Shown piece by piece: positions 3,039-56,300 of a stretch of DNA of 64,000 nt (positions are counted from its first letter, which is position 1; every line of letters begins with the position of its first letter). The stretch is from a virus. The stretch lies in the IMG/VR virus record IMGVR_UViG_3300034101_002201, positions 32,348-96,347 of that record. One strand, 5' to 3'. The notes under the pieces are model-generated. The model was not told the DNA's origin and did no database searches. It saw only the letters and a list, made by a program, of their open reading frames with translations. A program made the translations under genes and the position numbers.

Positions 3039-3039
3039 C

Positions 3040-22512: not shown

Positions 22513-22523
22513 AAGGATGCAAG

Positions 22524-23153: not shown

Positions 23154-23155
23154 TC

Positions 23156-23773: not shown

Positions 23774-24600
23774 AAACATTGCTGATACAAGAAGCCGGTA
23801 GACACAAAGTAAATAGCAACTTTAGAGAGTGTTTATCTTTACAGAGAGCTATGCAAGATCAAAATCATGACGCAGAAGTATGGGGGCTTGGTCATGATAA
23901 CTACACTAAAACGCCAGATTGGGATTCTTATGACTTGATTATTAATTTAGAGAATCACGATGAAACTAACTGGATTCCAGATTTATCTAAAGCAAAGACT
24001 AAAAAATTTATTTGGTCTATTGATGCACATTGTAAAGGTATTCAGAGCTATATGAAAACATTTTATGATGGGAAATATGATCTAATATTGCAATCTACTC
24101 CAGAGTTTTTGAATGAACATAGCGTATGGTTTCCAAATTGTTATGATGATGATTTGATAATGCCTCTTGGTATAGAAAAAAGACACGATGTAGGTTTTTG
24201 CGGTATGATAAATAATAGAGGCGGATTAATAGATATTCTAAGTTCATTTTTTGCTTTTAGATTAGATGAAAAAGTATTAGGACAAAATATGGTTCATTCT
24301 ATCAATTCATACAAAGTCCACTTTAATGCTAATATTTCTATTGATATCAACTATAGAAATTTTGAAACGATTGGATGCGGAACTTGTTTGTTGACAAATT
24401 ATAACCAATATTATGATAAATTAGGATTCATAGATGGAGTGAACTGTCTAATCTATAAAGATGTAAATGAGATGATAGAGAAAATAAAAATGGCATTAAA
24501 TAATGATAATCTAAGATATAATATAGAGCAGGGCGGTTTAGAACTAGCAAAACAGCATACATACAAAAAAAGAATAAAGATTATAGAGGAGCTTTTATGA
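23770..24600 (+). CDS. CgeB-like GT-B glycosyltransferase
   Basis: This 276-residue protein matches the CgeB/YkvP-type glycosyltransferases (GT1-like, C-terminal Glyco_trans_1_2 pattern). The N-terminal half is LLIQEAGRHKVNSNFRECL. The donor-binding half contains DVGFCGMINNRGGLIDIL, then HFNANISIDINYRNFETIGC and a GTCLLTNY line, and ends with EQGGLELAKQHTYKKRI. It overlaps its neighbours by ATGA at both ends. Relatives are widespread in phage and spore-coat glycosylation clusters. Confidence 0.75.
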   Translation: MKTLLIQEAGRHKVNSNFRECLSLQRAMQDQNHDAEVWGLGHDNYTKTPDWDSYDLIINLENHDETNWIPDLSKAKTKKFIWSIDAHCKGIQSYMKTFYDGKYDLILQSTPEFLNEHSVWFPNCYDDDLIMPLGIEKRHDVGFCGMINNRGGLIDILSSFFAFRLDEKVLGQNMVHSINSYKVHFNANISIDINYRNFETIGCGTCLLTNYNQYYDKLGFIDGVNCLIYKDVNEMIEKIKMALNNDNLRYNIEQGGLELAKQHTYKKRIKIIEELL

Positions 24601-36630: not shown

Positions 36631-38499
36631 TTATCTATTAAGCTCATAGGTCCAATTTAAATTTAAAGAGTATCTTCCGGCTTGAGCGTCCCAAGTTTCA
36701 GTTGGTGGAGAAAGAAAATATTTTCTTATTCCATATTCCTTAGCTGGGCTATAAGCTGATATTAAATTGTTTATTTGGGATCTAAAAGGATCATTTAAAG
36801 TTGGTTTTGATAGAACGGAAAAAGTTCTTATCCTGTCAACCAAATTTGTGCTAACGCCAGAATTATAATATGTATCAAATACTAGTTCTATACTTAGATT
36901 ACGCTGATATTCTGTTCTACCACCGATGTATTGTAAAACTGGTCCAGTTTGCCTACCTAAAACCGGTATAACGGCAAAAACATCTCCGGGATAAGTATCA
37001 GAATAGTTTACATTAGAAGATATTACACCGCTAATACTTTCAGATAATAATGGGCTTCTATTGTCGTACTCAAAGCTATAGGATATTTCTCCTAAAAACT
37101 CATTAGCATTTATACTAATTGATAGTGGCTGTGGATTTAAAACCACAGATGTAGTATTTTGTGCGCGTTTATAAACATAAGAATTAATACCATACATTCC
37201 ACCGCCAGTTATTTGATGTAATTTATTTCTCGCATTAGCATATGCATTATTAAATAATGAATTATGTGGTAAATCATTTCCGCCACCATATATTGTTGCC
37301 GACGCGGATTTGCTGCTTAAACCTTTAATATTTCCTTCAATAGAAACTTTTGTTAAAGTTTTGGTCCTAGCATCGTCACTTAATACTCTAGATAAATTTA
37401 ATCTATAATCTTCGTATGCTGAATCTTGAGATAAGATCCAAGAATCAGAAACAGTATAAGATCCGCCCGTTTGATCTATTGATTCTGTTCGTGAGTGATT
37501 AAATCCTCCATACTTGCTAGTTGCTAAATTTAATAAATTCTTTCCAAAATATGAATTTAAATCATTATCTTTAAAATCTGGATATTGTTCATATCCAGAA
37601 CTATTATTTCCACTATTTTGATCTCTATCTTTTAGTATAACTTTAAATATAAAGTCTCTGGCTTGTTTCCAAGCTGGCATACTCTCATTTTGAGTATGCA
37701 TTGTACGCCCGGTGGCAGTGACATTTCTAGTTAATCTATAACCTCTTATAGATTTAATATGATTTTGTGGATTATACGCATAAAAAACATTAGATGTATC
37801 TGTATTTCCTTTTCCCTCTTCTGGCTCTATTGACCAACTCTCGCTATAATCTTCTACAAATCCTCCGTATGTATCAATTTGTGTATTTATATTTTGTCTG
37901 GTATACTGTTGATTCATCAAATGATCGTCAAGATTATTAGAAGTTGAAGTAATCATACTAGGTGTTATTAATCCATCAGAAATAATATTTTCTGAACCGT
38001 CTAGTAAAACTTCTGCTCGTAAGTTTATTGTATATCTACATAAATCAGTATATCCACCTTCTTCAAAACTTATAGACTGAACGGTTGGATAAAAAATTAA
38101 AACTGGCTCATCACTCAAGCTACTTGGTGTATTTAATTCAGAGTCTAATGAGGCTGGATATAATTCAACTTTCTGACCATCATTTTTAAACAATTCTCGT
38201 AATAAATTTTGTTTTACTATGATAGATGACATAGCGTGGGCTAAATCTACCATTTCCCTAGCTGGTCTAGTATAATTTGCAGTAAAAGAACCAACCGGAG
38301 ATGCTGGGCCGGTATGTAAGCTTCCGCCACCGGTTATATAATACGGTGATCCTTGATCTGGTAATATTGTACCATTTAAAACAATATCATAAAAACTACC
38401 TAAAACACCATTTTTGTTTCTAATGGCATTTTGAGTGATAGAAATAAATGGCACCGGCCTTATAACACACTGATTGGTGTTTTGGTATACTACTAGCAT
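36631..38499 (-). CDS. Virion structural protein, 622 aa
   Basis: This beta-rich protein lies directly after the 3,955-residue protein, overlapping its stop by 1 bp (TAATG). The N-terminus (MLVVYQNTNQCVIRPVPFIS) and the segment LIFYPTVQSISFEEGGYTDLC (about 130-155) resemble tail-tip or baseplate wedge proteins, and residues 430-520 have a strand-rich ALSIS/LGEISYSFEYDN pattern. It lacks a recognised enzymatic motif. A role in linking the giant protein to the hub is inferred from gene order only. Confidence 0.6.
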   Translation of the reverse strand: MLVVYQNTNQCVIRPVPFISITQNAIRNKNGVLGSFYDIVLNGTILPDQGSPYYITGGGSLHTGPASPVGSFTANYTRPAREMVDLAHAMSSIIVKQNLLRELFKNDGQKVELYPASLDSELNTPSSLSDEPVLIFYPTVQSISFEEGGYTDLCRYTINLRAEVLLDGSENIISDGLITPSMITSTSNNLDDHLMNQQYTRQNINTQIDTYGGFVEDYSESWSIEPEEGKGNTDTSNVFYAYNPQNHIKSIRGYRLTRNVTATGRTMHTQNESMPAWKQARDFIFKVILKDRDQNSGNNSSGYEQYPDFKDNDLNSYFGKNLLNLATSKYGGFNHSRTESIDQTGGSYTVSDSWILSQDSAYEDYRLNLSRVLSDDARTKTLTKVSIEGNIKGLSSKSASATIYGGGNDLPHNSLFNNAYANARNKLHQITGGGMYGINSYVYKRAQNTTSVVLNPQPLSISINANEFLGEISYSFEYDNRSPLLSESISGVISSNVNYSDTYPGDVFAVIPVLGRQTGPVLQYIGGRTEYQRNLSIELVFDTYYNSGVSTNLVDRIRTFSVLSKPTLNDPFRSQINNLISAYSPAKEYGIRKYFLSPPTETWDAQAGRYSLNLNWTYELNR

Positions 38500-41400
38500 T
38501 ATTTTCCTCTGATACGTAATGGTAATGATTCAGAAATAATCGTTGTCCCGCTAGTCACAAGCATTAATCCAGATTCAGATATGCTTCTTGGGTATCCGCT
38601 TGCAAACATGGATAATCCAGACGGCATTGCGCCAGAAGCGAAGCCTAATATTGCACTATTATACATTCCTAATGTATTATACACATTTGCCGACACATCT
38701 ACTCTGGTATATAGGGGTAATGAACTACTTGGCAAAGCGTTGGTTCCAAAAGAATACAATAGAAGACCTGTTTTCTTAGGGGTGCCAGACTTGTATTCAC
38801 CAATTACTGCCTCTATATATGGTCTATGTGTTATAAAGCTTTGCGTAGAAGGATCTTGACCAGAAACCTCTAAAAATATATATCCATCTTTTGTTGCGTA
38901 AACATCATTAGATGTAATAACAGGTACATTGGGATCACCCGCATTATAGAATTTAATTCTAGCTTCTTTATTTTCACTTACTTTATCACCAAAGACTCTA
39001 CCCTCTATCCAAGCATTTTCATTTCTGGTAGATGGCGGATTTTGTCTTAACATTATATCTTTGTCATAAACAATGCCAGATGTATTCCAATATTCATTAC
39101 CAACAAATATAGTATAATCAGCATCACTTCTGTAAGGTCTAGTAAGATATACATTTGAGCCATATTGTTCATTTTCAAGTCTACTTGGCGATGTGTCTTT
39201 TTCAACGAATTTCCAATCTCTAGCTCTCCTATTTGCCCAATCAGAAAATCCATACTCATATGTATAAACTGCCCCAGCTTTTGGTATATATGAATATTGT
39301 TGATTACCATAGTTTTGTCTATTTCCAGAAATACCAAGATCTATTACCTGTCTTGTAGTAATGTCAAAGGATTCATCAAAGTACTTTCTACCAAACTCTC
39401 CTCTTGTAATAATTTGTTCATTTCCATATGAATGACCGGGAGCGCCAATAAGCATTATGTCATTATTTAAATACAATGACTCTCCAAATCTATCAGATAC
39501 AATTGACACTCCGCTATTTTGTCCCATCAATGAATCTGGTTTTAATTTTTTAACGCACTGCCAAGAAATATTTACATCATCAACACCAGATCCATTCCCA
39601 GTTTTTTCAAAGACATATACAGCACCACCGCCACCATTCTTTCCTAACGATAATTGACTTGTTGTACTCCAAGGATTTATATTTTCTGATTTAAATGCCG
39701 AGAATGGAGAACCAATAATAACTTTATTTTCTTGTATGGAAACAGAATAACCAAATAAATCTCCGGGATATAGATCTGGAATTTTATCTAAATCCATATA
39801 ATCATATCCTTTATCTTTCAATAGTTCTGGTAATCCACCATCAATTGTGGCATCAACATAAAGATTACCACCTATTACTCCACTAAATCGTGGATACATA
39901 CATCCAGTTTGTAAAATACTTGCGAAGAAACCACTGATAAATTCATTTTTTGTTTCTTCTATTTCTTTTTGATCTGTCAAATCTGCCCAAGGTATATCTG
40001 GTCTATCTGTGACGTATTCAGAATTATAAGTACTTTCTTTATTATTTATGTGAGAGTAGCTTGGACTTCCAAATGACGAATTACCACGGAAGAAAGATAC
40101 TAAACTTTGCATACTATTATCATTAATAAAGTATTTAGCTGGACTTCCTCTTTCTGGAGAAATTAATTTAGTTTGAACATTATATTGTCTACCTAATATA
40201 TCTGTTGGTGCAAAATAAGTTTCTGGATACAAACTTCGTATAAAGCGTCCAGCGTCCTGTCTAAACACGCCTTCCGAATCTACCAAGAATTGACCTTGAA
40301 TTAAATTAGGATCAGATAATAATGTAATTCTAGATCTATTATATCCAGCCTCAAATGATGACCAGATTTCTAATTCTTGTGCGGCGACTACTGGCCCATC
40401 ATCTATTAAATTAAGACTAAGACCTTCTAGTTCACACAGTTCTGTGGAACTGCAATATTTAGCACATTCTGTACTAATAGGTCGAATAACTTCTATCTCT
40501 GATGTACTGCTAGGAATACGATCAGATATCTTCTGTTGCTCATATCCAACTACAACATCATACTCAGAAAATCCTACAACATTTCTGGTAGATATCATAG
40601 CTCCAGATATTCCAACAAGTCTAGTTGTTCTTGGTCTAGGTTCAGATACTAAATTAAGGCTATTGGTATATCTAGTATTGCATCCAATGTAGATGTTGAT
40701 TTCACTAACATTTTCTGCCACTTGCACTTGTAGAGTTTCTTCTGTATCTGCCGGTAGTACGAAGGCAAATGCTGGCGTAAGTGTTTCTCCACTAATATAA
40801 TCTCCATTATCATTTATATAAGATAATGAAGATTGCTCTGGAAAGCTTGTATCTGGACAGGGGTGACGGGGAGTTCTAAATACATTTTCTATAACAACAT
40901 ATAGTGGCACTCTTTCTGTTGGAGTTTCTTGCAAGGTTTTAAAATATAATTCATATCCAGAGCAAGCAACGACGGGAAAAGATACCTTACAAAATCCTGT
41001 ACGCATTTCCCAAAAATCATTTACTGCTATTTTTGGTACAAGATCATTTACAGGAGAATATGAATAAGCTAATGGGATAGAACTTGGTCCTAATTTTATC
41101 GGTGTAAAGTCTATTCTTCCATTCATTATAGGATCTTGAGACTCTCCAAATGAAACAAATGGTCTAAATTTACTAATGTAACTATCAGAATTAAGACCTA
41201 GAGAAAAATCTTGTACAGAAGCATACTTGTCTAAATAGTTCAAATATATTGGTTTCATTTGAACATTAAGTGCGGTCAATAATTTTTCTATATTTTTAAT
41301 ACTTGATATGTTTTGATCATATGTAATAACTAATTTTTTATTCAAACTAGTTGTCCTACTATTTCCCTTTAACCACAATTTAATAGCTTGTAATTCATCT

Positions 41401-44400
41401 GCATATTCTGGACTAGTAATATCATTTAGAGGATTTGCTATCCAAGCAACATCTATGCTATCGTGTAAATCTTTAGTCGGGAATCCCTGTATAACATCGT
41501 TATTTCCTCCCAATACTCCATACAAAATAGATTTTGGATAAGCATCTATGAAACTAGTCCTGTTAGGCCATTGATTTTCACCGCCAATTTGAGCAACTGT
41601 AGAATAAACTCTCTGTTTAGTCTTAGTGTCAATATGAGAAACTAAGTTAACATAGAAGTTCACATTTTGATCTAAATAGCTATCATATATAAATTGCTTT
41701 GATTCACTATTAATTCCTAATAAAACGATTGTGGAAGTATCGTTTTCATAATATGGTTCTTCTACGCAATAGTAGCCCCTTGGAGAGACTTCTTCTTCTT
41801 CTGAATATGGATCTATTTTTACTCTAGATACGGCTTTTGCTTGTAAGACATAACCTTTACCATCAAAGTCTTGGGGTTTATAAAACACGGCTTCTGGATC
41901 TAAATTATAGGCAAAGTTATATTGTAAAGATGAGTAGTCACTATTTCCACTATCCCATATAAAATCTAATTCTGGCTTTGCTCTTCCACCAAATTCACCT
42001 CTTTCATTACTATCAGTTCTCTTTTCTATTATTGGTATACTAATAGTCTTTTCTGGAATTTCTGGAATAGTTATAGTTTGCATAGTTTTTTCTGCTGCAA
42101 CTAATAATGGAATTGGTTCTTGATTTTTTGTTGGCTTTGGTGGTGGTGGTGTATCATAGCCACAGTCTGGCACATAAGATCCAAAAATTAAAGGCCAATT
42201 ATATGAATAGATGACCGTTACAAATCCCTTTGGTGTTGGTTTGCAACATAAATCTTTCCATTCTGCCCGAATATCACCATAATGCTGAAGCGGCATTTCA
42301 CATCTGCTTTGAATTTGTATTTTCTCGGGTGGATCACTACAATCTGTGACCTTAGCACATCTCATTTGCTCAAAGAAATTAGGATAATAAATCTTAATAT
42401 CTGCTACACCGCTACCTATTAAGTTGGTTCTAGCTACATATGTATCAGTACATCCAAAGGGAACAAAAGATGGAACTATATTATTGAATGATGAATATCC
42501 ATTTGGTAATGATTCATATCTATTTCTAGCTTGGACTAACCTCATGCGAGAATTTAGTCTTTCTAGAAGAGTATTAAGAATTTTATTAGATTTAGAGTAC
42601 TGACCATCTGCTTCCCATATTGGATCATTACCAACAAGTACTAGATTTCTATCACCAAGTGCTAGCCAATTAGATATCTTATCAAAAACTTCATTACTTA
42701 AAGCGTTTGCTGAAGGTGTAACAATAAATATTAAACCTACACCTTGAGGAATTTCTGGATCATCAAAATCAGTCTTAACAAAATGTTTGTCTGCAAAGAC
42801 ATCTTTTACGTAATCAAAGTGTCCCGAATCAGCAGTCTTATTAGACATACTAATCATTTCATGTAAATTGCCAAATTTTCCATACTCTATTACGCCACTA
42901 TGTGGATAATATTTTCTTGATTCAAAAATTTTAACAGATCCAGCATTAACAGTCGCGGGCCAAGTGGGCTTAATACTGTCATTTCTATATTGTGGTCTAA
43001 ATTTCTTTTGTCTACCTTTTATGAATTTTTCGCACATACAGGTATAATAAATATCAGCATCGTTTGATAGATTCATGCTGTCCGTTGGAGATCCAACTAT
43101 CAACTTAGTTCCATCTTCATTTAAGTCTAGACTATACCCAAGCCTTGGAGTTGGTGCTGCCAAAGAATTGATAAAGGTCCAAGACCCTATTGGCGCATTA
43201 TCTTGATATGTATATTTGTATACTTGTTCGTATTCTTTAATGTCATAGTCTAGTCTAACTCTAAATTTATCCTCTGGACTTAAACTAAGATATAATTTTT
43301 CAGCATCTTCAATTCTTCCGGGAGACTGTAAATATTGTTGTAGTTCTGTTGAATATTTTGGCTGTTTAGACTGTACCCAATAAGGTATATTTAGATATAA
43401 GTATATTTTTGAGTCTGGCTTATATTCATATACAGTAACAGCATCATTAATATAAGGAGATCCAACAGCTATAACATCAGTATCGTCACTTATGGTTACA
43501 GCGTGACCAAACCTATCTGGATGAGAATAAGTTACATTTGGGGATCTTATTTCTTGAATCAAATTCCAAGATCCACTTTCTTGTTCAAAAATGTAAACAC
43601 GACCACCACTTTCTGGAGGTATAGTAAATGAGGGGTTGGCACTAGAATTAAATGATCCAACATTATTGGAAATAAATCTCTTACCATTTACTTCATTTAT
43701 GAAGTTGAAATCTAAAATTTTATTTAAAGCACCCTTAGACAATTCGATCCAATCTTCATCTTGACCAAATTCTGATGTAAATACAATGGCTTCCCCGCTA
43801 GATGGCATATCTGTATCAAGAGTCTTTACGCCACTATCGTGGCTATATTTTTTATAGTAGTCTACGAATCTACTGAGTGCTGGATCTAATGCTCCAGATA
43901 GCGATGCGCTATTATCTATGCAAATAGATAGTAATGGTGGAATATTGTTGTGTACTTTATTTTCATCATAAGGAAATGCTGTTAAGAATGAGGATTGAAT
44001 TCCACTAAATATTTGATTTATTTTTTCTTCTGACGGTACTTTGCCTCTATTTCTACTAATAGTAGATAGACTAATAAAATCTGGCTTATCTGGAAATTCT
44101 GATACACTGAGATTTGGATCATCAGCTATGGGCTGAATAATCATTAGCTTAACATCAAATTTGACAGATGGTGTGCTAAAATATTTGTATACTAAATCTT
44201 TATTTGTTATTTCTGCAACTACTTCTTCATATCCTTTATAACTATTAGGATATCTACCGGGTAATCTATACGAAAATTCATCTGTGAATAACATTACGCC
44301 AATATTCACTGTGTCAGGTTCTGTAAATGATAATGATCGCGTCCACTTGGCACTCGGTCCACCAACAACGATGATATTTCTTGAGTCATGACCAAGTGAC

Positions 44401-47400
44401 TTTCTTCCACTATCTATTGCTAAGTCTAAAGAATGTCCAAATTGTCTTCCCTCTTGACCAACATTCCAATATGTTTTTAAAATGTTAAATCCGGCAGGCA
44501 AGCTACCATCAAAGTCATTTGATTCAACTATTACAGAATAATCTCTTAACATTTCATTTGGAAGTGTCAATATTCCACTTAATTGCCAAGGAGATTTATG
44601 CTTGTCTGTGGGCCAAGAATAACCAGTTGGCCTATCTTCTCTACGATAAATAAATACAGAGCCTGCTTCTTGTAGAGTCTTTGTTCCTCCGATTTCATTT
44701 GAATCTGTTATAACTAAATCTCTCTTGGGCGCACCAACTATTAAAATGTTATCTTTAGAAGCTATGGCTTTGCCAAACTCATCTCCAGATGCAATGTAAT
44801 TAGTGGGTGGAATAATCTTTATGCCACTATTGTTGAAGAATGTGTCAGTATTAGCTATTGAATTATATTCTATTTCTGTAAATTCACTAGGAACTTCTAC
44901 AAAGTCTTTCGATCCATATCTACCTACCACAGTAACAACGTAAGGATAATTAGGAATTAAACCAGAATATTTTCTAATACCATAAAAATGTCCACTATAC
45001 ATTAGGTCAGTATCAAATGTAGTTACCGTTTGACCAATATTGTTTGTCTTTGTACTTTTAAAAGCTCCGCTCGGCAAAGATAAGTTCGTGTAAGTATACT
45101 GAGGTCTAAATATACCACCGTCTACACAAACCTCTGGTTCATACCAATCGATGCCGTGAATAGTAACAAAATCTTCTTCGCATCTAGCATTATTGCCATC
45201 TTCACATATCCCGCGACAAATTAAAGAAACACCTCGTATATCATCATCAGCATCTATTGTGGCATAAGAATTATCAAACGATGTTATTCCATCTCCAACA
45301 TTATTTTTATCCCATCTTATTGATGCCATGACGGGATCAGCGGATTCATAAGTCAGATAATTTATAGTATATAGGCTACAAGTTTGTGTTAATAAATTTT
45401 CTTGGATAGCAGCAGTGACCAAATTCATCGAAGCGTTACCAGATTGGTATACGTATGGAGAATTTGTGAAAAGTGGCATTGAACCACTAATATATCTATT
45501 ATCTACTAATTGTAAACCTCTGATATAGAGCGGTATCTGCAATTCTGGAGTAATATCAGTAAAAGATGTCAAAGATAAAGATTCAAATAGTATATCTGTT
45601 TCGCCATTTGCGTACAATGGCATTGATATCTCTCTCATCGGCGCGCCACTAACATAAAAAGTCAATGGCCTAGGAGCAGAATCAAACGATCCAAATAATT
45701 GTGGACCGCTGAATACGTCTATAGTAGCAAAAGCCGAAGTAAACAAATTAACAGAATCAGAAGACCAAGTAGATCCAGATGTATAAAAATCAACATTTGC
45801 GTCATGTCTAGGCCACTTTGATCCACTAGTATATAATGTTACGCCAGAAAATGGTACAAAATTTATACCACTATTAAATAAAGTAATTGTATCAAATGAA
45901 TATTGCTTACTCACAGAATACATATTCATTGTTGTATTCTTACCAGATCCCACTACTAGTGCTTGGCATTTAATATTGGCATTATGTATTTTTACTTTGC
46001 TCTTAAATGGTTGTCCACTTGGATATACAATATCATACTGTAAAAACATAGAATTAATATCTGTATTAAGATATCTATCATTAAATTCTCTAGCAATTGC
46101 TTCTGATTCAAACGATGACCAACCTTCTGAATAATCAAAAATGCTATTTTGATTAAAGACAGTTTCAATAGTTCTTATACAGCCGGATGGTTCAAGATAA
46201 TGAGTTTGTCTTGTAACGAGTCCAAAGTCTTGATTTGGTTTAAATGGATGGTTCTGAGAGGGTGTATACAAACTTACTATTAATTTAGGACCAAGTTTTT
46301 CATCATTCCAAATAACGTTTCCGCTGGATTCATATTCTAGTGTGGTTTGTACTGATATGCCACCATCTCTAAATCCATAACCTCTAGGAAGATTTTTGAC
46401 TATCCTTTGTGGAACTCTATAAAATCTATTTGCATCATCGCTGTCCAAGTCAGCTATATTAAATCTTAAAAAGTCATTCTCTATTTGAGTGTGGTAACAT
46501 ACTCCAGAAAGATTAACATCATCTGGTAATGACTTATTAGTAAATTGTGAATAACCAGATCCATGATGATTAAGTTCATGTGTTATATAATCAGAACCAA
46601 CCCTTACAGTCCAAACATCAAATGCTGGAGAAAAGCTACAAGTTCTAAAAGCACCTAAACGCCAATCATCTATATTATTATCTACAAATGACCATAATTT
46701 ATATCCATCATTATTTTCATCTGCATCTGTCCAAAATTTTTGTCTTATAGTTTCAAAAAATTTGGAAATACTAAAATACTTGTAAACACTATCTCTATTA
46801 GCAGAGGGAACATATTTTTCTGGGCCGGGATAGTATATTTGAGCCGGTATATTGTTAGTAATATTAGTTTGATTGCCATATAAAGAATTAGCAATAGGAT
46901 GATTTTTTGTTGAAGTAGTAGAAATACCAAACTCATGAACAAACATTTTCATTCCAGATCCAATGTTGGAATGACCGATTAATAACTTGTTTCCACTTGG
47001 ATTAAACCCAGTGGAGGTATTAGTAATAGCAGCTCCCCTTGCGTGATTAAAAATTCCAGTTTTTATTTCATTATCTGTATATAGACTAATTCTGTTTGCC
47101 AAAGATGGAGAAGGAGATCCAAATTCTCTGAATGTGACTATTGCCGATAGTGGGTACTGGTATTCATAATATGGTAAACTATCCTTAGCCTTTGATATTG
47201 TTCCATTATTTATTAGATATGCACATAGATAACCGTTTTCATATCCAAGATAAAAACCATTTGTTTTTTGTGAATTAATCTGTGAAACTAAAATACCAGA
47301 GTTAAAGAAAAAGTCATTCGAATGATAGTCGGGTGTAAATCTAATATAAAAAGCAAAACCATTATTTGTGTTTACATTTCCAAAGTCTAAATGAGCATTT

Positions 47401-50366
47401 GCACCAGACACTCTTACGGCGTTGTCATAAGCATCGCAAATCTTACCATATAGAGGATGACCTATAAAGTTGTTGCTACCACTAGATAGCAATGTCCAAT
47501 CCAATGATGAATAATTACCAGTATATCCTACTAACTGATTAGTGAAAATATTATTATTTTTGAATCTAAGTCCAAGATTTTGATATTTTTCACAATTGCC
47601 CACATATTTTCCACTCAAAGAACCAAGTCCACTACCAAGTGGTAATGAAAATATATTAGAACCACTATCATAATTGAAATTAAAGTAACCAGATAAAAAT
47701 GGTCGTTCAATTTCTGGATTATAAAATGAGTAATCAAATTCTGCCGCACTAAACGGACCATTTGTAATTGAGCCAGTTACCCCTCTCCATCTACGAGAAT
47801 AGTTAGTTTTTAATGTTGGATAATTGAGATAACCGTGGGGAATATTTTCTATCTTAGATAGTTGAGTTGAATATCCTAAACCGTGATTATGCTTTCTATC
47901 TGATGCCGAATTGTAATTAGAAGGCATCAATGTGAATTCTCTTTTTGTCATCTCTCTTGATTGATCACCACCGATAGTAATCATGGACAAAGCATTAGAT
48001 GGAGTATAATTTACAATTAATTTAATACTACAAATTTTTGCTCCGGTTGGCAAGGGTGATATATCAACATATAAGTTTTCAAACATGGATGCCGATGTAT
48101 AGGATATTGTGTCATATCCAAAATAGTTTTGCTCATTGTAAATTTTCAATGGAAAAGTATATTCTTGAAACTGAACACCAGTTACCCTTGGACACATCAG
48201 CCAAGCAACGCCATAAAATACATCAGCAATATTTGATTTTTCAATAGAAGTCAAATTATTTGAATTAGATACCGTAACAGTATCTATCAGCTTAAATATA
48301 TCAGACTCTAGTGTTGGATATGTATATTTTAATTCTTCTTGAGCAAAAATTGTTCTTGCTTTATCAAGCACATTATTTTTACTTTGTATTAATGCATTTT
48401 CTGATATTTCTTTAGCAAATTCTTTGCTATATTTTGAAAACTGAACTTGATGTTTTGAATTAGTAATTACTTTATATTCTGATAAATTCTTAGTTGTTGT
48501 TTTGATCTGGTTTAGGATTGTACTATTTGGTTTATAAACATCAATATCTTGTATTGTATAATGATCGCCTAGACTTGTGATATCTTTTTCATAATACTGA
48601 GATTTGTTTGATATAGCGTCAAATGACATAGATAAATCATCGATATCATAAAAGCCAGATATTTTTGGTATATCTTGGATTTTATACGATATTGTATCAT
48701 CATTTTGTAAAAATCCGCCAATTTTTTTAGTTACATTCAAAAGCTTATCATCACTATAACCAACAACATCAATAACATAATCTGGAATACTTGAGTTAAT
48801 TTTACTAGCTATTACTTTTAGCTCAACGCTTGTTACATTAAAATATTCATCATTATTTTTTAACAACTCATATGCAGCATTGTTAAATGCGGGATTATTT
48901 CCTCCAAAGTCAAAAGCCCCACCAACAAAACCCTTGGCATCTATAAATGGTAAAGTATTAAACTTAACAACTAATTTCCCGCTTGGATAAGAATCTGCAA
49001 GACCAGAGAGCATTATAAATTGATCTCTAGAGTCTGTACGGATTTTATTGACTAGTATATTAGCATGTTCTAGAGTAGTATTTTCGTATCTGTTTTCTTC
49101 TTCATCAAAAGCAATCCATTTACTATTTTTAGTTGGATATATCCCATTATCATATTGATATAGCATCATTTCTGATGGACCAAGAACTCGACTTATTGTT
49201 CTTGGTGTGTAACTAGATAATTGATATATCGGTAAAAATGATTCAATTGCTAAGTTTTCTGTACCGCTGTTTCCAACTTCTACGGCAGAAATTTTTAAAT
49301 AATTAAGTGGATCAATTAGTGGATTAAACTGCGGATAAGTAGACAAACAAGTATCTTCGTATCCCTCGTCAAATTTTTCAGAAAATGGTGATTGTTCGCA
49401 TTTTGCGCTAATAGAAAATGATAGTGTATATCCGCTTGGCTGATTTATTAATGGATAACTATTTTGCCACTGATAAGATGAAACTAGATTATTTGTTTTA
49501 GTATCAGAAATATAGGTAGTATATCCGGTATCTGGTTTTATGTTTATATCATTATATGATATTATTAAATTGCCAGATGGGTCTTGAAATTTTACATCAT
49601 AAATTTTGTAATATTGTGGCTTTCTCTCCATATAATTGCTATATGGTGCAAATGCTCTTATAGCAAAATAACTTTGCTTCGCTATCAAGTTTGGCTTGCT
49701 GACAGAAAATTTATATACTATGTCTCCGCTAACTAGTAGATTATTTGGAAATACATAAGAAACTTCATCATCTGTAATGAGATATCCGTTATTACGATTC
49801 GAAGTATAGTCACCTATAAAAACACCTTCATCTACAGCACCGTCGTGTCTAACTGGATATTCAGTTGATAAATAATCATAATTTTCGAGAAGAATTGAAT
49901 TACCATTTTCTGTTATCAAATTTTCAAAATTAGTAATTTTTACATCAACTGGAGAATTATCATATTTTGTAGAAAACTGAGCAAAACCGCTGGGAAACAA
50001 TTTTTGAGTAGCAATAAATCCTGCGGAGCCAAAAAATTTATCAGCATATTTTATACTGTATTTACTTGAAGACCCATTTCTTGATCGCAAAGTTCCATCT
50101 AATATGCTAATAAATTTTAAATCACTATTACGTCCACCTAATCTTGATATTGGAGATAAATTTGAATTTTCTCTTAGTCTTACACCACCAAAAAAACTAA
50201 GGCGTGTTGCACCATTAGCAATAAATTGTGTGTTAGCTCTTATTTTAAAAACTGAACCGTTTTTGTGATTTATTGGTCCAAGTACAGATGAATTTTTAGC
50301 AACTAATTTACTAGTAGCTTTAATTCTTTCGTAATCGGTAGGTACTAAACAAATCTCACAAGTCAT
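38499..50366 (-). CDS. Giant tail/adhesion protein with FG-GAP blades, 3955 aa
   Basis: This is the largest protein in the window, next to the tape measure, so probably a tail-tip or fibre protein that contacts the host. Around residues 980-1130 is a LamG/concanavalin-like lectin segment (GNVNTNNGFAFYIRFTP). Seven FG-GAP-like units lie at about 1862, 1975, 2284, 2410, 3535, 3626 and 3739 (e.g. DEFGKAIA...ILIVGAP, LGYSLDLNEDG...LIVGSP). A VWA/MIDAS-like segment (D-N-S-A-S at about 2149) lies between units 2 and 3. Two Rossmann-like segments are at about 2545 and 2970, with a proline-rich linker near 2740. Arrays of short LPLYxxG-like repeats occur at about 1490-1650 and at the C-terminus. RBS TAGGAAATAAA. 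Confidence 0.8.
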   Translation of the reverse strand: MTCEICLVPTDYERIKATSKLVAKNSSVLGPINHKNGSVFKIRANTQFIANGATRLSFFGGVRLRENSNLSPISRLGGRNSDLKFISILDGTLRSRNGSSSKYSIKYADKFFGSAGFIATQKLFPSGFAQFSTKYDNSPVDVKITNFENLITENGNSILLENYDYLSTEYPVRHDGAVDEGVFIGDYTSNRNNGYLITDDEVSYVFPNNLLVSGDIVYKFSVSKPNLIAKQSYFAIRAFAPYSNYMERKPQYYKIYDVKFQDPSGNLIISYNDINIKPDTGYTTYISDTKTNNLVSSYQWQNSYPLINQPSGYTLSFSISAKCEQSPFSEKFDEGYEDTCLSTYPQFNPLIDPLNYLKISAVEVGNSGTENLAIESFLPIYQLSSYTPRTISRVLGPSEMMLYQYDNGIYPTKNSKWIAFDEEENRYENTTLEHANILVNKIRTDSRDQFIMLSGLADSYPSGKLVVKFNTLPFIDAKGFVGGAFDFGGNNPAFNNAAYELLKNNDEYFNVTSVELKVIASKINSSIPDYVIDVVGYSDDKLLNVTKKIGGFLQNDDTISYKIQDIPKISGFYDIDDLSMSFDAISNKSQYYEKDITSLGDHYTIQDIDVYKPNSTILNQIKTTTKNLSEYKVITNSKHQVQFSKYSKEFAKEISENALIQSKNNVLDKARTIFAQEELKYTYPTLESDIFKLIDTVTVSNSNNLTSIEKSNIADVFYGVAWLMCPRVTGVQFQEYTFPLKIYNEQNYFGYDTISYTSASMFENLYVDISPLPTGAKICSIKLIVNYTPSNALSMITIGGDQSREMTKREFTLMPSNYNSASDRKHNHGLGYSTQLSKIENIPHGYLNYPTLKTNYSRRWRGVTGSITNGPFSAAEFDYSFYNPEIERPFLSGYFNFNYDSGSNIFSLPLGSGLGSLSGKYVGNCEKYQNLGLRFKNNNIFTNQLVGYTGNYSSLDWTLLSSGSNNFIGHPLYGKICDAYDNAVRVSGANAHLDFGNVNTNNGFAFYIRFTPDYHSNDFFFNSGILVSQINSQKTNGFYLGYENGYLCAYLINNGTISKAKDSLPYYEYQYPLSAIVTFREFGSPSPSLANRISLYTDNEIKTGIFNHARGAAITNTSTGFNPSGNKLLIGHSNIGSGMKMFVHEFGISTTSTKNHPIANSLYGNQTNITNNIPAQIYYPGPEKYVPSANRDSVYKYFSISKFFETIRQKFWTDADENNDGYKLWSFVDNNIDDWRLGAFRTCSFSPAFDVWTVRVGSDYITHELNHHGSGYSQFTNKSLPDDVNLSGVCYHTQIENDFLRFNIADLDSDDANRFYRVPQRIVKNLPRGYGFRDGGISVQTTLEYESSGNVIWNDEKLGPKLIVSLYTPSQNHPFKPNQDFGLVTRQTHYLEPSGCIRTIETVFNQNSIFDYSEGWSSFESEAIAREFNDRYLNTDINSMFLQYDIVYPSGQPFKSKVKIHNANIKCQALVVGSGKNTTMNMYSVSKQYSFDTITLFNSGINFVPFSGVTLYTSGSKWPRHDANVDFYTSGSTWSSDSVNLFTSAFATIDVFSGPQLFGSFDSAPRPLTFYVSGAPMREISMPLYANGETDILFESLSLTSFTDITPELQIPLYIRGLQLVDNRYISGSMPLFTNSPYVYQSGNASMNLVTAAIQENLLTQTCSLYTINYLTYESADPVMASIRWDKNNVGDGITSFDNSYATIDADDDIRGVSLICRGICEDGNNARCEEDFVTIHGIDWYEPEVCVDGGIFRPQYTYTNLSLPSGAFKSTKTNNIGQTVTTFDTDLMYSGHFYGIRKYSGLIPNYPYVVTVVGRYGSKDFVEVPSEFTEIEYNSIANTDTFFNNSGIKIIPPTNYIASGDEFGKAIASKDNILIVGAPKRDLVITDSNEIGGTKTLQEAGSVFIYRREDRPTGYSWPTDKHKSPWQLSGILTLPNEMLRDYSVIVESNDFDGSLPAGFNILKTYWNVGQEGRQFGHSLDLAIDSGRKSLGHDSRNIIVVGGPSAKWTRSLSFTEPDTVNIGVMLFTDEFSYRLPGRYPNSYKGYEEVVAEITNKDLVYKYFSTPSVKFDVKLMIIQPIADDPNLSVSEFPDKPDFISLSTISRNRGKVPSEEKINQIFSGIQSSFLTAFPYDENKVHNNIPPLLSICIDNSASLSGALDPALSRFVDYYKKYSHDSGVKTLDTDMPSSGEAIVFTSEFGQDEDWIELSKGALNKILDFNFINEVNGKRFISNNVGSFNSSANPSFTIPPESGGRVYIFEQESGSWNLIQEIRSPNVTYSHPDRFGHAVTISDDTDVIAVGSPYINDAVTVYEYKPDSKIYLYLNIPYWVQSKQPKYSTELQQYLQSPGRIEDAEKLYLSLSPEDKFRVRLDYDIKEYEQVYKYTYQDNAPIGSWTFINSLAAPTPRLGYSLDLNEDGTKLIVGSPTDSMNLSNDADIYYTCMCEKFIKGRQKKFRPQYRNDSIKPTWPATVNAGSVKIFESRKYYPHSGVIEYGKFGNLHEMISMSNKTADSGHFDYVKDVFADKHFVKTDFDDPEIPQGVGLIFIVTPSANALSNEVFDKISNWLALGDRNLVLVGNDPIWEADGQYSKSNKILNTLLERLNSRMRLVQARNRYESLPNGYSSFNNIVPSFVPFGCTDTYVARTNLIGSGVADIKIYYPNFFEQMRCAKVTDCSDPPEKIQIQSRCEMPLQHYGDIRAEWKDLCCKPTPKGFVTVIYSYNWPLIFGSYVPDCGYDTPPPPKPTKNQEPIPLLVAAEKTMQTITIPEIPEKTISIPIIEKRTDSNERGEFGGRAKPELDFIWDSGNSDYSSLQYNFAYNLDPEAVFYKPQDFDGKGYVLQAKAVSRVKIDPYSEEEEVSPRGYYCVEEPYYENDTSTIVLLGINSESKQFIYDSYLDQNVNFYVNLVSHIDTKTKQRVYSTVAQIGGENQWPNRTSFIDAYPKSILYGVLGGNNDVIQGFPTKDLHDSIDVAWIANPLNDITSPEYADELQAIKLWLKGNSRTTSLNKKLVITYDQNISSIKNIEKLLTALNVQMKPIYLNYLDKYASVQDFSLGLNSDSYISKFRPFVSFGESQDPIMNGRIDFTPIKLGPSSIPLAYSYSPVNDLVPKIAVNDFWEMRTGFCKVSFPVVACSGYELYFKTLQETPTERVPLYVVIENVFRTPRHPCPDTSFPEQSSLSYINDNGDYISGETLTPAFAFVLPADTEETLQVQVAENVSEINIYIGCNTRYTNSLNLVSEPRPRTTRLVGISGAMISTRNVVGFSEYDVVVGYEQQKISDRIPSSTSEIEVIRPISTECAKYCSSTELCELEGLSLNLIDDGPVVAAQELEIWSSFEAGYNRSRITLLSDPNLIQGQFLVDSEGVFRQDAGRFIRSLYPETYFAPTDILGRQYNVQTKLISPERGSPAKYFINDNSMQSLVSFFRGNSSFGSPSYSHINNKESTYNSEYVTDRPDIPWADLTDQKEIEETKNEFISGFFASILQTGCMYPRFSGVIGGNLYVDATIDGGLPELLKDKGYDYMDLDKIPDLYPGDLFGYSVSIQENKVIIGSPFSAFKSENINPWSTTSQLSLGKNGGGGAVYVFEKTGNGSGVDDVNISWQCVKKLKPDSLMGQNSGVSIVSDRFGESLYLNNDIMLIGAPGHSYGNEQIITRGEFGRKYFDESFDITTRQVIDLGISGNRQNYGNQQYSYIPKAGAVYTYEYGFSDWANRRARDWKFVEKDTSPSRLENEQYGSNVYLTRPYRSDADYTIFVGNEYWNTSGIVYDKDIMLRQNPPSTRNENAWIEGRVFGDKVSENKEARIKFYNAGDPNVPVITSNDVYATKDGYIFLEVSGQDPSTQSFITHRPYIEAVIGEYKSGTPKKTGLLLYSFGTNALPSSSLPLYTRVDVSANVYNTLGMYNSAILGFASGAMPSGLSMFASGYPRSISESGLMLVTSGTTIISESLPLRIRGK
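38502..38770 (-). repeat. C-terminal LPLYxxG-like repeat array
   Basis: The last 90 residues of the giant protein hold about six diverged copies of a hydrophobic-Tyr/Phe-x-Ser-Gly unit: LLLYSFG, LPLYTRV, LGMYNSA, LSMFASG, LMLVTSG, LPLRIRG, spaced about 12-20 residues apart. The same unit occurs in an internal array. Confidence 0.6.
45409..45890 (-). repeat. Internal LPLYxxG-like repeat array
   Basis: About ten copies of the short unit seen at the C-terminus occur here, e.g. ITLFNSG, VTLYTSG, VDFYTSG, LTFYVSG, MPLYANG, IPLYIRG, MPLFTNS. Spacing is about 12-25 residues. They suggest a repeated beta-strand stack in the fibre. Confidence 0.6.
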
Positions 50367-50374
50367 TTTATTTC

Positions 50375-53300
50375 CTAAGCCATTCTAGGCACAATTCCCG
50401 GATTACTCTTTAATTCACCATCTGTAGTTGCTCTAAGTGTATTAATTTTGTTCATTATTTCAGTTAAGATTTCATTCTTTACAGATTGTGATACACTAGC
50501 TAAAGCCTGCATACCAGTTAGATTTATATTTACATTGGTAGCATCTAATTTGATTTTAATTTCTGTACTTTTTAGGGCTTCAATATTTTTAGTTAAATCT
50601 CGGTTAAAAGTATTAAGAGCAGCGGTAAATATAGACATGGAATCAGAACTAGAACTTGGGCTTGGGCTTGGGCTTTCTGCATTCTTGCTACCAAATCTCC
50701 TATATCTAACCATTCCTCCGTCTGCCATCATCGCCGTTCCATTATTAGATACACCACTCGATCCATTGTTCATCGCTTGTAAAACACGTAAATTATTGCC
50801 TCTCTGAACAGCATTTCTATTAACTACAAATTCACCCGGAGTTAACATAGCTGGTATAGTATCTGTTCCCCTAGGTACAAATATACCATTACTAGCATAG
50901 AGTAATCCACCCTTTGCCATACCAACCGCATTTCCAGCTTCTCTGCCACGATTAACAACGTCTGCCAATTCTAATTTAGCAGCATTTACTATTACAGTCT
51001 CTGTCTGTACTTGCATTTCTGCCATTTCTGTTCCTAGTTGACCAGTTTCTCCAAGCATACCGCCTAATTGACGCAATCTGGATTTACTAGCTTCTTCTTC
51101 TGGTGTTGTACCAGATAATACTTGTGCTGCTCTTGCATCTCTTACACCCATGGAAGACAATGCAGCACCGGCAGCGGCTTCTGATAGACCTCCGGGACCG
51201 GCAAGTTGTTGACCATATAAAGTTTGTACGCCAGCCTCTTGTTGTCTTTGAATGTCCATAGACGCAGCACCAAGAGCCTGCGATCCATACAATTTCATTA
51301 GTCTTTCATCGCCACTAGCGATAGCAGCAGTAGCACCAACGGCAGATTGCTTTTTAAAGAACTCTTCTACATCACCCTTAACAAGAGATTCTAAAGAATC
51401 TTTTTCAAGTTTATTCTTTTCTTGAGTAATCTTGAGTTGATCTTCTTCTAGCTTGATTAATCCACGTATTGTTTCTATTTGAGTTCTATATGCTTTTTGT
51501 AAATCTTTTTGTGTTTCATCAGCTTCGACACCGGCAACACCCTGCATACCATTACGCTGGCTTTTTCTGGACTCTATATTACCAAACGCCCCACCAATTT
51601 CAGCATTCCTTCTTCTCAATTCTCCTATGTCGCCACTTTTCATAGCAGTTAAACCTAAACGAGATCCTTCAACATTAGATTTAGCTAATAAATTTCCTTT
51701 TCGTTCTTGGTTTGTTACTGCGCGACCACCATATTTTGCTTCAACTTCTCGCCCCTCCATTGTCAAGTCTAGAGCTTCTTGTTGAGCCTGCACTAAATTG
51801 CGTTCAGCTTCAATCCTTTGTTTAGTAAGTGATATCAGTTGTTGATTTATTTTGGCGGTTTGTTCAGCAACCTTTTTCGCTTCTTCAAGTGTCTTTTGAC
51901 CAGCTTCGTCAAGATATTTTTGAAACACACTAAGATCGCCACCTCTTAGTTTTGTCATATCATCATTTGATAGCTTGACATTACCAAGTACGTCTTGCAT
52001 TCGTTTTCTTACATCTTCACCTATACCAGCATTTTTTAATTGCTCGTCTAAATTCTTAGCAAACTTATCAGTGAATCCTTCTGCATTTAATCCACGGAAA
52101 TCAGCTTTACTAAAGTCTTTTTTAACTCCTTCGAATATTTCATTATAATTTGCAGATACGGCAGCAAAAGCTGCGGCATTTTCTTTAAACATTTGTACAG
52201 ATTTATCAGTAGCACCTAATTGTTCTAAATTTGCTGCAACATCATTGATAGCAGATTGAACATTTTTAGGATTCATGGCCTGACCAGCTTCGCTGAATGC
52301 CGCTTCAAGAGTTGCAACACCTTGAGTAATTGGAGTAGATCCAACTTCTAAACTATCTGCAAAAACAGATAAAGATGCAGCGGCAGCATTGGCAGTAGCT
52401 ACTGGGCCTCGCAAACCTAGATTTAACGCTTCAAATGCTTTTTTAGCTTTTGCAACTTCTTTGGCTATATTATCGAAGCCCTGTTTTAATTGAGTACTTC
52501 CTTGATTTACGAGAGAAAAATATAAACCGGGATTATTTTTCTTGATGTCTTCCATGACATCTTCAAATGATCCACCGGCTACAGCAAATTGTCTAGATAA
52601 AGCATTTATTGCTGGGGTACTTTGTTGTATTAATGCTTCTTGAGCTTTTTTATCGCCAGCAGACAATTCTTTATTTTCTTTGTCTATTCTTGTATTCCTC
52701 TGTTTGCCAGATTCTAACCCCATATAACCAGCTAGACCTAGTGTGCCAACTCTAGCTGTGCCACGCAGAAAACCCCCAACCATGCCACTCTTATTTTTTT
52801 CATTATCTGCAATAGCCTTTTTACTAGTTTCGCTATTTTTCATTACTTCTTGACCAGCCATGGCATTAGATGCTATAGCCTGAGAAGCCGTTATAGTTCC
52901 ATTCTCTAAGTCTTTCATTGCTTTAGTAACAGCTTCAGATCCATCGTTTAATGCTTTTTGTGTTTTTACTCCTTGAGCTTGCGCCGCAGCTAATGAACGA
53001 ATACTATCAGCTGTATTTCCACCAAATAAAGTTCCAATACCTATAGCAGCTTCTTTAATGTATGGTCCTATAATTGGAAGTTCGCTTCCTAATTTAAGAG
53101 CAGATGCTGTTGCTACTCCGACTGCTAATCCAAATGGACCAAAAAGTGAACTTATTCCAATTATAGTAGACCCTAAACCATTTATGGCTTCGGAGCCAGC
53201 TGCTTCTATGGCATTTGATTTAGCTTTTTCTACATTGCCATCTTGAATAGCCTTGTTAGCTTGACCTTGATAATCAACAAATGAGTCAATAACAGAAGTT

Positions 53301-56300
53301 ATTGCGGTAAATGCTAATCCTAAACCTATTGCTGGGCCACTCAATTTATTTAAATTTGTCAAACCCTTACCAGCTAAACCGCCAGCTTGTGCTGACACAG
53401 AAGCACCACTACCAATTACAGATTTGGCTGGGTTAGCTATTGTGGCAGATGCGCCCTTATAAAATTGAGAACCAGCCTTCGTAATCGTACCTCCAGCGGT
53501 AGATAATCCACTCTTTACCGCACCAACTCCGGGTATCTTAGATAGTGCATCCCCGCCAACACTCAAAGTTCTTCCTAATGCGCCACTGGCCTTTGTTGCA
53601 ATACCTTTGGAAGAACCAAAAATATTAGAAAATGTTGCATTTGGACTGTTCAATCCTGCACTAAATCCTCTGCCAATATTAGATTTATTTATAGCAGTGG
53701 CGGCTGTGGCACCTCTAGTAATTAAACTTTTTCCAGTATCTATAGTTGCTTGAGTTGCCCGTCCAGCTAATCCTATTCCTCTACTTAAACCGGCACCACC
53801 CGGAGCATCTACTCTTCCAGCCATTCCTCTTTTAAAGATGGTAGAAAAACTTTTTAGACCGGGAATTCCTCCTTTAATAGTAGAAAATAAATCTGTGAGC
53901 GATTTGGCACCACTCAAAAAATCTAAAGCATTTTGAGCTACCATTTTAGCTGTAGCTAAAGATAATTGTATATTCATTTGCTGTAGAGCTATAATAGATA
54001 TACCAATAGTAGAAGCTAAATTGCTAAAAGTGTTTAATAAAGTAGCACCGACTCTTTCAAATGCTGAACTATTTTCATCAATAACCGGAGTCAAAGAAGT
54101 GAGTGCAGCTTGTACAGCCGTTAATCCACCTAAAGAAAAATATAATGATTGTCCAAAATTCTGTACAAAGCCAGATGATTTGTTCTGAGATTCAGCATTG
54201 CTATCTACCGCTTTTGTTTGCGCGATTTGTGCTTTTGTTAAAGCTTCTGCTTGTTGAGTTAAAGAGTCTAATCCAACGAATGCAACTATGCCGGGATTGC
54301 TTTTGCTACTTGCCGGTTGCGCCCCAGCCATTGGTGTACCACTAGCAAATTTTTGAACAATTCCTCCGCTGGCATATCTTCCAACTTTATTCATACGGTT
54401 TAGATTACCGTAACCAATATTCTGGGCGGATGAGCGATTAATAACAAACTCGCCGGGGGTTAATAGGGCGGGAACGGTGTCAGTTCCAACTCCACCGCCC
54501 TTTGCAAACTGTTGCACATCCATCCAAAGATTTTTACGCCCCATCATATCAACAAGCTTGGAACTATTGATCTTAAATCGTGAACCGGGCTGTAGTGTAA
54601 ATTCACTTTCTGATTCTGGGGGTTTTTGATAAAATGTTTCCATTTTACCAGTTCTGGGATTCAAGGCTTGTTTAGAACCACCAACTTTTCTACCACTTAG
54701 TTGTTTCTCAACATCAACTCCCATAGCGTTCTTTTTAGTCATGATGGTCATCATTGCTGCCCATTTGTCTTCTGAGCGATCAGCATTATCCAAGAACATT
54801 TTGGCTTTATTCATTTCCTTACTAGTAGAAAGGAAACCAGATAGTTTAAATGTTCTTCCAATTATTTTTTTGGCTTCTTGATCATAATACTTTTCTCTAT
54901 CAAATAATCTAGTACCTTCTGGAATTTTAGGATTTTTATTAAGTCCAGTTTGGTTTGCCATCGAATCAAATGCATTGCGGGATATGGAACTATATAATAG
55001 TTTTGGTGCAGCAGATCTTAAAGATCTCATATCACGAATTTTATCAGCAGTTTCTTTTCTGTCGGATGAATATAAAGAGTTTCCTTCAAAGAAACTTTGT
55101 AGAGTGTTTTTAGGATCTCTAGCAACACCCCCGCCTTTGGCAAACTTTTGAATAAGTCCACCAAAGAACTTCTTTCTTGGTCCTTTTGGATTATCAAATT
55201 CTGATCTACCCTTACTAGTTCCTTCCATAGAAAGAACTCTTTTCTTCAGTGCTTGAAATGTTCCACTAGTATTAACTTGTTCAGCAAGAGTATTCATTGT
55301 TTTTCTAGATGCTATATCATTCAATATGCTACTATCTAAAGTCTTTTTAGCATCGGTTGGCTTGTCTGCTAGTTCTGAAAATGCTTTAAATTGCCCCAAA
55401 TGACTACCAATACCCATGGGAAAATCGAAAGCATCTCTATCTTGTTTGCCTCTATTTGCATCAAATGGCGCACCAAGACTACTTACAGCCGCTTCAAAAA
55501 TTTTGCCAGTAGCATCTTCTAATCCTATTGATTTAATTACATTTTGGTTAAAAGCACCAATAGCGGTTGGAAGGCCAACGGAAGAAGCTAATTGAGAAGC
55601 TACGTTTGGTATTATGCCTGTATAAGCATTTGTAAGAGAAGTTTTTATACCTTGTTCAACAGAAGAGTCTGAATTTTTTGTAGAAGGGAAAGACACCCCC
55701 TTAGTTGTAAATGTTTGTCGGTTTTTACCCCCAAAAGCTATTCTACTAACTAATTTTTCTAATCTATTTCCGAAAGTTAATCCATCTGGAGCTTCTTTGC
55801 GGTCCATTAAATTTTGTAGTTTACCGCTTTTATCAGTAAGTTTTAAGTTTCCAGATATGCCACCAGCAAGTTGATTATTGTTAGATAATGTAGCAAGAAT
55901 ATCTTTTACAGTAACAGTTCCTTTACCAGTAGCCTGCGAATCCATAGGATTTAAAGCTATTGCTCCAACAGTTCCGCCCATAGCATACCGATTATTATTC
56001 ATCGCCGCAAGTGTACCAGCACCCATTTTATTAACGCTACTCTTGCGTATAACAAATTCGCCGGGAGCTAACATCGCAGGAACAGTATCACTATTACCGG
56101 TGCCGGGAACTAAACCGCCTCTTGCAAATCCAAGAACTTTTCCGCCCTTATTATATGTTCGTCCAGATGTAGCACCGCTCATTATTCCACCAAAAAATCC
56201 ACCTAAACCTTTGGCAACTTTAAAAGCTGCTAATGCTGCTAGCATTGGAAGTAAAGGCTTAATAGAATCTGCGATCTTAATTAATGCTGAAGCTAAAGAT

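What the first reader, a model, noticed from the sequence alone, without database searches (positions are those of the whole stretch)
38499..50366. Seven FG-GAP-like blades with a MIDAS-like insert in integrin-alpha order
In the 3,955-residue protein I count seven FG-GAP-like units, at about 1862, 1975, 2284, 2410, 3535, 3626 and 3739. A D-N-S-A-S (D-x-S-x-S, MIDAS-like) segment lies between units 2 and 3. Integrin alpha chains carry their I (VWA) domain inserted at that place in a seven-bladed propeller. A second long insert (about 1,100 residues) separates units 4 and 5. If this is one propeller, it would be an unusual phage adhesin and may bind a host surface through a metal site. The order of strands around the MIDAS-like segment could mean a permuted or atypical VWA.
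Basis: partly seen in the sequence, partly recalled or inferred. Interest (0 to 1): 0.85.

Follow-up and report, generated by a model that had tools for sequence, protein, structure and literature searches.

The report
Integrin-like propeller in phage tail protein
A giant tail protein of an uncultivated family of phages contains a seven-bladed propeller of the type found in animal integrins, with a conserved metal-site-like domain plugged into its second blade and a fast-changing 1,000-residue arm after its fourth, which makes it a likely cell-surface binding device that can now be tested.

Summary
The 3,955-aa ORF (38499-50366, minus strand), directly after the tape measure gene, has seven FG-GAP/Cage units. 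All seven are conserved in about 60 non-redundant relatives from uncultivated phages, and profile comparison relates them to one another (controls far lower). AlphaFold2 models of the two halves, made separately, both find integrin alpha chains as their best solved structures. This is most likely one integrin-type seven-bladed propeller, but closure of the ring was not modelled.

Insert 1 (residues ~2009-2249) lies inside blade 2, between strands B and C, not between blades 2 and 3 as in integrins. Its DNSAS motif is real and kept as [DE]x[ST]xS in nearly all relatives, at the end of a strand of an alpha/beta domain, but none of 55 members matches Pfam VWA and profile comparison with real VWA domains, native or permuted, finds only the motif. 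It is MIDAS-like, not demonstrably a VWA.

Insert 2 (~2496-3528) holds two tandem DUF4350/GIFT-like domains and beta-rich stretches, and is the fastest-changing part in most close pairs. Best reading: a tail-tip adhesin with conserved platform, conserved metal-site-like domain and variable binding arm. Function is inferred.

The parts
38499..50366 (-). giant tail-module protein, 3,955 aa, next gene after the tape measure
   Evidence: synteny kept in relatives
44559..44861 (-). residues 1836-1936: candidate N-terminal closing strand (SGIKII) plus blade 1 (FG 1864-1865, P 1880, C-D strands)
   Evidence: the closing-strand role is inferred
44343..44483 (-). residues 1962-2008: blade 2, strands A and B (FGHSLDL, VVGGP)
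43620..44342 (-). insert 1, residues 2009-2249: alpha/beta domain in the B2-C2 loop of blade 2
   Evidence: AF2 secondary structure; insertion site
44274..44285 (-). TDEF, residues 2028-2031; D/N at 2029 in 59 of 60 sequences
43902..43916 (-). DNSAS, residues 2151-2155; conserved as [DE]x[ST]xS
43539..43619 (-). residues 2250-2276: blade 2, strands C and D (GGRVYIFEQ, WNLIQEI)
43155..43517 (-). residues 2284-2404: blade 3, with a roughly 70-residue mostly helical insertion after strand C
42882..43154 (-). residues 2405-2495: blade 4
39783..42881 (-). insert 2, residues 2496-3528, after strand D of blade 4
42432..42854 (-). residues 2505-2645: first DUF4350/GIFT-like alpha/beta domain
   Evidence: 33 of 45 members match DUF4350, best E 1.1e-4; the window member scores below the curated cut-off
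41181..41654 (-). residues 2905-3062: second domain, homologous to the first
   Evidence: hhalign probability 96, E 2.4e-9
40467..41186 (-). residues 3061-3300: most variable segment in most close pairs of relatives; beta-rich
39042..39782 (-). residues 3529-3775: blades 5, 6 and 7
   Evidence: PDB hits are integrin alpha headpieces
50375..57499 (-). tape measure protein (context)
36631..38499 (-). conserved 622-aa neighbour, present after the giant gene in the relatives whose downstream gene was fetched

Best explanation
The protein is a phage tail-tip component built on one integrin-type seven-bladed beta-propeller (residues ~1836-3775). Two domains are inserted in loops that open on the same face of the propeller: a conserved alpha/beta domain with a MIDAS-like [DE]x[ST]xS site in the B-C loop of blade 2, and a 1,000-residue arm (two DUF4350/GIFT-like domains plus beta-rich stretches) between blades 4 and 5. 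The propeller is the platform; the alpha/beta domain probably makes a conserved metal-dependent contact; the variable arm probably reads host-specific surface features. Shown: seven units, their conservation, insert positions, motif conservation, relative rates of change. Inferred: ring closure, metal binding, adhesion, tail-tip location.
For: Seven mutually recognisable units kept across about 60 relatives. Foldseek against PDB: the model of units 1-4 hits integrin alphaX, an I-domain integrin, at E 5.4e-8, probability 1.00, 665 columns; the model of units 5-7 gives integrin alpha chains for ranks 1-15 (best E 2.0e-4); a profile search of PDB sequences lists only integrin alpha chains (best E 0.0042). 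The motif residues are among the most conserved polar residues of insert 1. Gene order tape measure - giant protein - ~600 aa protein is kept. Insert 2, above all 3061-3300, is the least conserved part in most close pairs, while blades and insert 1 are conserved. Integrin-type Cage/FG-GAP blades: PMC3192720.
Against: Foldseek TM-scores are low (about 0.1-0.2) and rmsd high, so the hits show local similarity, not a superposable whole. The ring was never modelled in one piece. alphaM headpieces (also an I-domain integrin) are not among the 50 best hits of the unit 1-4 model. No metal-binding or adhesion evidence exists. The third MIDAS piece (threonine loop) was not identified. The place of the protein in the virion is unknown.
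Confidence: 0.55

Rival explanations
1. Structural tail component: the propeller and insert 1 hold subunits of the tail tip together, and the DxSxS residues cap a helix or stabilise a loop without metal. Host binding is done by insert 2 or by other proteins.
For: Insert 1 and the blades are conserved between close relatives, which fits an internal contact at least as well as a variable receptor. D is replaced by E in 12 and D2029 by N in 8 of 60 sequences.
Against: Acid, hydroxyl and serine character at three spaced positions is kept almost without exception, more than expected for a capping motif; the site lies at the end of a strand in an alpha/beta domain, the usual place of ligand or metal sites.
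Confidence: 0.3
2. Insert 1 is a circularly permuted VWA domain: the strand ending in TDEF corresponds to VWA strand 4 (TDG), and the strand ending in DNSAS to VWA strand 1.
For: D/N at 2029 and [DE]x[ST]xS at 2151 are two conserved sites at the ends of two strands; the best fold hit of the unit 1-4 model is an I-domain integrin.
Against: No Pfam VWA match. Permuting the alignment does not raise the similarity to true VWA domains: 32 columns, probability about 1.4 in native and permuted order. No equivalent of the VWA threonine loop was found.
Confidence: 0.2
3. Tail enzyme: insert 1 or insert 2 cleaves a host surface polymer.
For: Alpha/beta domains are common in hydrolases; weak local fold hits to carbohydrate-binding modules in the second half.
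Against: No conserved histidine in insert 1; no enzyme family matched over its cut-off in Pfam.
Confidence: 0.1
4. Two or more separate partial propellers rather than one ring.
For: About 1,030 residues separate blades 4 and 5; the two halves were modelled apart.
Against: The same seven units in relatives; a conserved strand (YSGxKL) precedes blade 1 and no equivalent D strand was recognised after blade 7, the pattern of a ring closed by the N-terminus.
Confidence: 0.12

Closest known systems
Integrin alpha N-terminal propeller with alpha I domain (e.g. alphaX beta2, PDB 4nen)
   Same: Seven FG-GAP/Cage blades; an alpha/beta domain with DxSxS inserted near blades 2-3; by geometry on the face of the 4-1 and 2-3 loops
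   Different: Phage insert is in the B2-C2 loop inside blade 2; not a recognisable VWA; a second giant insert after blade 4; the integrin calcium loops were not searched for systematically and none was seen by eye; no beta subunit known
Bacterial integrin-type beta-propellers (PMC3192720)
   Same: Seven FG-GAP/Cage repeats in prokaryotic proteins
   Different: In the passages read, that survey concerns the propeller only and describes no inserted alpha/beta domain in the bacterial ones; not phage proteins
Phage receptor-binding propellers: phi11 Gp45 (five blades), PhiKZ gp131C (seven blades), PRD1 P2 (PMC4901313)
   Same: Propeller as platform of a phage host-recognition device, or proposed as such
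   Different: Not described there as FG-GAP/integrin type; no inserted MIDAS-like domain is mentioned in the passages read
FG-GAP repeat proteins of jumbo phage Phosso and of uncultured Caudovirales (BFVD A0A6J5S3H5)
   Same: FG-GAP units in phage proteins
   Different: Phosso has long runs of many repeats and shares only the repeats

Membership tests
Integrin-type seven-bladed beta-propeller | seven FG-GAP/Cage repeats (FG ... P ... G) | tested here: met
   blade 2 has a 250-residue insertion where the Cage pattern (PMC3192720) allows 2-15
Integrin-type seven-bladed beta-propeller | fold closest to integrin alpha propellers | tested here: met
   best PDB hits of both half models, local similarity only
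Integrin-type seven-bladed beta-propeller | single closed ring | tested here: inconclusive
   only half models possible; N-terminal closing strand inferred
Integrin-type seven-bladed beta-propeller | calcium-binding loops in the later blades | not tested
   no clear DxDxDG seen by eye in the aligned blades
Integrin alpha with I domain | insert between blades 2 and 3 | tested here: not met
   insert lies between strands B and C of blade 2
VWA / MIDAS domain | DxSxS at the end of a strand in a Rossmann-like domain | tested here: met
   strict DxSxS in the window and many relatives, [DE]x[ST]xS in 59 of 60
VWA / MIDAS domain | match to the VWA family profile | tested here: not met
VWA / MIDAS domain | MIDAS strand is the first strand of the domain | tested here: not met
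   three strands of the insert precede it in the model
VWA / MIDAS domain | threonine and distal aspartate of the metal site | tested here: inconclusive
   candidate aspartate D2029 conserved; no clear threonine
VWA / MIDAS domain | divalent metal binding | not testable with these tools
   needs protein
DUF4350/GIFT-like domains in insert 2 | profile match | tested here: inconclusive
   33 of 45 members match at E up to 1, best 1.1e-4, window member 0.0011 and below the curated cut-off

The most novel reading that the evidence does not exclude
A phage lineage independently built an integrin-like, metal-dependent adhesion head: a seven-bladed integrin-type propeller with a permuted MIDAS domain in blade 2 and a variable ligand-reading arm on the same face, used to grip the host before DNA ejection.
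Probability: 0.2. Interest if true: 0.85.

Novelty: new variant of a known kind. Interest (0 to 1): 0.58.

Why it matters
Integrin-type propellers are known in animals and bacteria, and propellers are known in phage receptor-binding proteins, but in the library searched I found no report of a phage tail protein that combines an integrin-type propeller with an inserted MIDAS-like alpha/beta domain and a large variable arm. If confirmed it would show a similar adhesion design outside animals, give a concrete binding hypothesis for an uncultivated phage lineage found in many metagenomes, and separate a conserved metal-site-like part from a variable, possibly host-range-setting part of one protein.

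Tried and rejected
Pfam, PHROGs and PDB sequence searches with the single protein: only FG-GAP_2. Phages in GenBank: no orthologue, only FG-GAP repeats in Phosso. Direct scans of viral contigs with the protein found nothing; the neighbouring 389-aa gene (called the tube gene here, by position only) opened the lineage. VWA by Pfam and by profile comparison, native, permuted, duplicated and reversed: rejected as a demonstrable relationship. Homology of insert 1 to the alpha/beta domains of insert 2: not supported. SGNH hydrolase reading of the motif: rejected, no conserved histidine. Other DxSxS motifs at 577 and 3724: not conserved. In six related phages without a match, the genes after the tape measure lack the propeller, so the module is not universal in the lineage.

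Full report
What was checked. The window is part of a 96,347-base virus record. The ORF at 38499-50366 (minus) is 3,955 aa and directly follows a 2,374-aa tape measure gene (Pfam PhageMin_Tail E 1.1e-25; PHROG tape measure families). Pfam finds FG-GAP_2 in the giant protein at E 1.6e-15 with four stretches. No cultivated phage in the collection searched has an orthologue.

Relatives. A scan with the protein itself found nothing, but the conserved 389-aa gene upstream (called the tube gene here, by its position) gave 80 loci. Of the first 40 records, 19 carry the propeller region; of the second 40, none. An alignment of 16 orthologues then found 75 viral loci and 3 loci in bacterial MAGs. Two of the three MAG loci are 97.6-100% identical over the whole protein to IMG/VR contigs, so those are most likely phage contigs binned with bacteria. 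Sixty non-redundant sequences, the window included, were aligned. The order tape measure, giant protein, ~600-aa protein is kept; in several relatives the giant gene is split in two adjacent ORFs just before the propeller part.

Seven blades. The FG-type glycine and the following proline are kept in nearly all relatives for blades 1-6, and the glycine for blade 7. One search looked at the wrong columns for the glycines of blades 2 and 4 (its line 'all seven: 0 of 52' is that mistake); those two, at 1977 and 2410, are invariant in A3. Profile comparison of the units gives probabilities up to 98; 84 control comparisons with other stretches of the same protein reach 8 at most; the weakest pair is units 4 and 7 with 8-15. 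A strand conserved as YSGxKL precedes blade 1 and no D strand was recognised after blade 7, the layout expected if the N-terminal strand closes the ring; this is inference.

Structure. AlphaFold2 on residues 1760-2640 with 60 sequences gives mean pLDDT 80, with most blade and insert blocks near 90; on residues 2641-3838 with 52 sequences, mean pLDDT 78.8 and pTM 0.44. The second model has integrin alpha chains at ranks 1-15 (best E 2.0e-4). A profile search of PDB sequences lists only integrin alpha chains (best E 0.0042). TM-scores are low, so these are local similarities.

Insert 1. The segment after the alpha/beta domain (GGRVYIFEQ...WNLIQEI) matches strands C-D of blades 1, 5 and 6 (probability up to 96), while the segment before it (VNIGVMLFTDEF) matches none. 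Insert 1 therefore lies in the B2-C2 loop, not between blades 2 and 3. In a four-stranded antiparallel blade the B-C loop and the D-A loop are on the same face, so insert 1, insert 2 (after strand D of blade 4) and the integrin I domain would open on the same face; this is geometry, not measurement. The model has strands at 2018-2027, 2068-2078, 2098-2102, 2145-2150 and 2192-2197 with helices between. The DNSAS motif follows the strand 2145-2150. Across 60 sequences position 2151 is D or E in all, 2153 S or T in all, 2155 S in 59; 2029 is D or N in 59. N at 2029 never occurs with E at 2151.

Is it a VWA? No member matches Pfam VWA. Against an alignment of 12 true VWA domains taken from bacterial genomes, the profile comparison aligns only the 32-column motif with probability 1.4, and permutation does not extend it. 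A permuted VWA is topologically possible, since a doubly wound four-strand sheet keeps its order when the two halves are swapped, but it is not shown.

Insert 2. Residues 2505-2645 match DUF4350 weakly (33 of 45 members, best E 1.1e-4; the window member is below the curated cut-off); residues 2905-3062 are homologous to them (hhalign 96, E 2.4e-9). Weak fold hits to carbohydrate-binding modules appear in the second model. Between relatives of about 63-95% identity, insert 2, above all 3061-3300, is the most variable part in most pairs, whereas the blades and insert 1 are conserved; in two pairs the stretch 1101-1250 varies even more. This suggests that insert 2 reads the variable host feature, and insert 1 something common to all.

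Literature. Integrin-type propellers in bacteria are described (PMC3192720), as are propellers in phage receptor-binding proteins (PMC4901313). VWA/MIDAS proteins of haloarchaeal tailed viruses are cobaltochelatase-like or AAA-ATPase partners, not tail adhesins, in the passages read (PMC8651126, PMC7911831). Searches for FG-GAP with phage tails, VWA/MIDAS with phage tails and integrin-like phage proteins found no report of this combination in the library.

Verdict.

Noticed in passing
window 50375-57499 (-), residues ~855-998 of the tape measure protein: The tape measure protein has a sub-threshold match to ADP-ribosyltransferase exoenzymes (PF03496, E 0.0052), with STS and ExE patterns by eye, and repeated GGxV...DTVPAxLxPGEFVI motifs around such segments (phrog_35029, 3 stretches).
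   Followed up: no
window 9860-14394 (+): DNA polymerase III alpha is split in two ORFs (PHP plus NTPase part, and finger part) with an FkbM methyltransferase gene and an RNase_T-type exonuclease gene between them; no Rfam match there.
   Followed up: partly
L110, L111, L112, L117, L118: The giant gene is split into two adjacent or overlapping ORFs just before the propeller part, showing that the N-terminal and propeller parts can be separate proteins.
   Followed up: partly
residues ~1480-1730 and 3860-3955 of the giant protein: Repeats of the type LPLYTSG occur on both sides of the propeller module, by eye.
   Followed up: no
window 14755-24600 (+): A run of genes that look like glycosyltransferases and FkbM-type methyltransferases, by eye.
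   Followed up: no
L005 7407-8228 (same virus record): A trypsin-family protease gene in a phage genome (Pfam E 1.1e-16).
   Followed up: no
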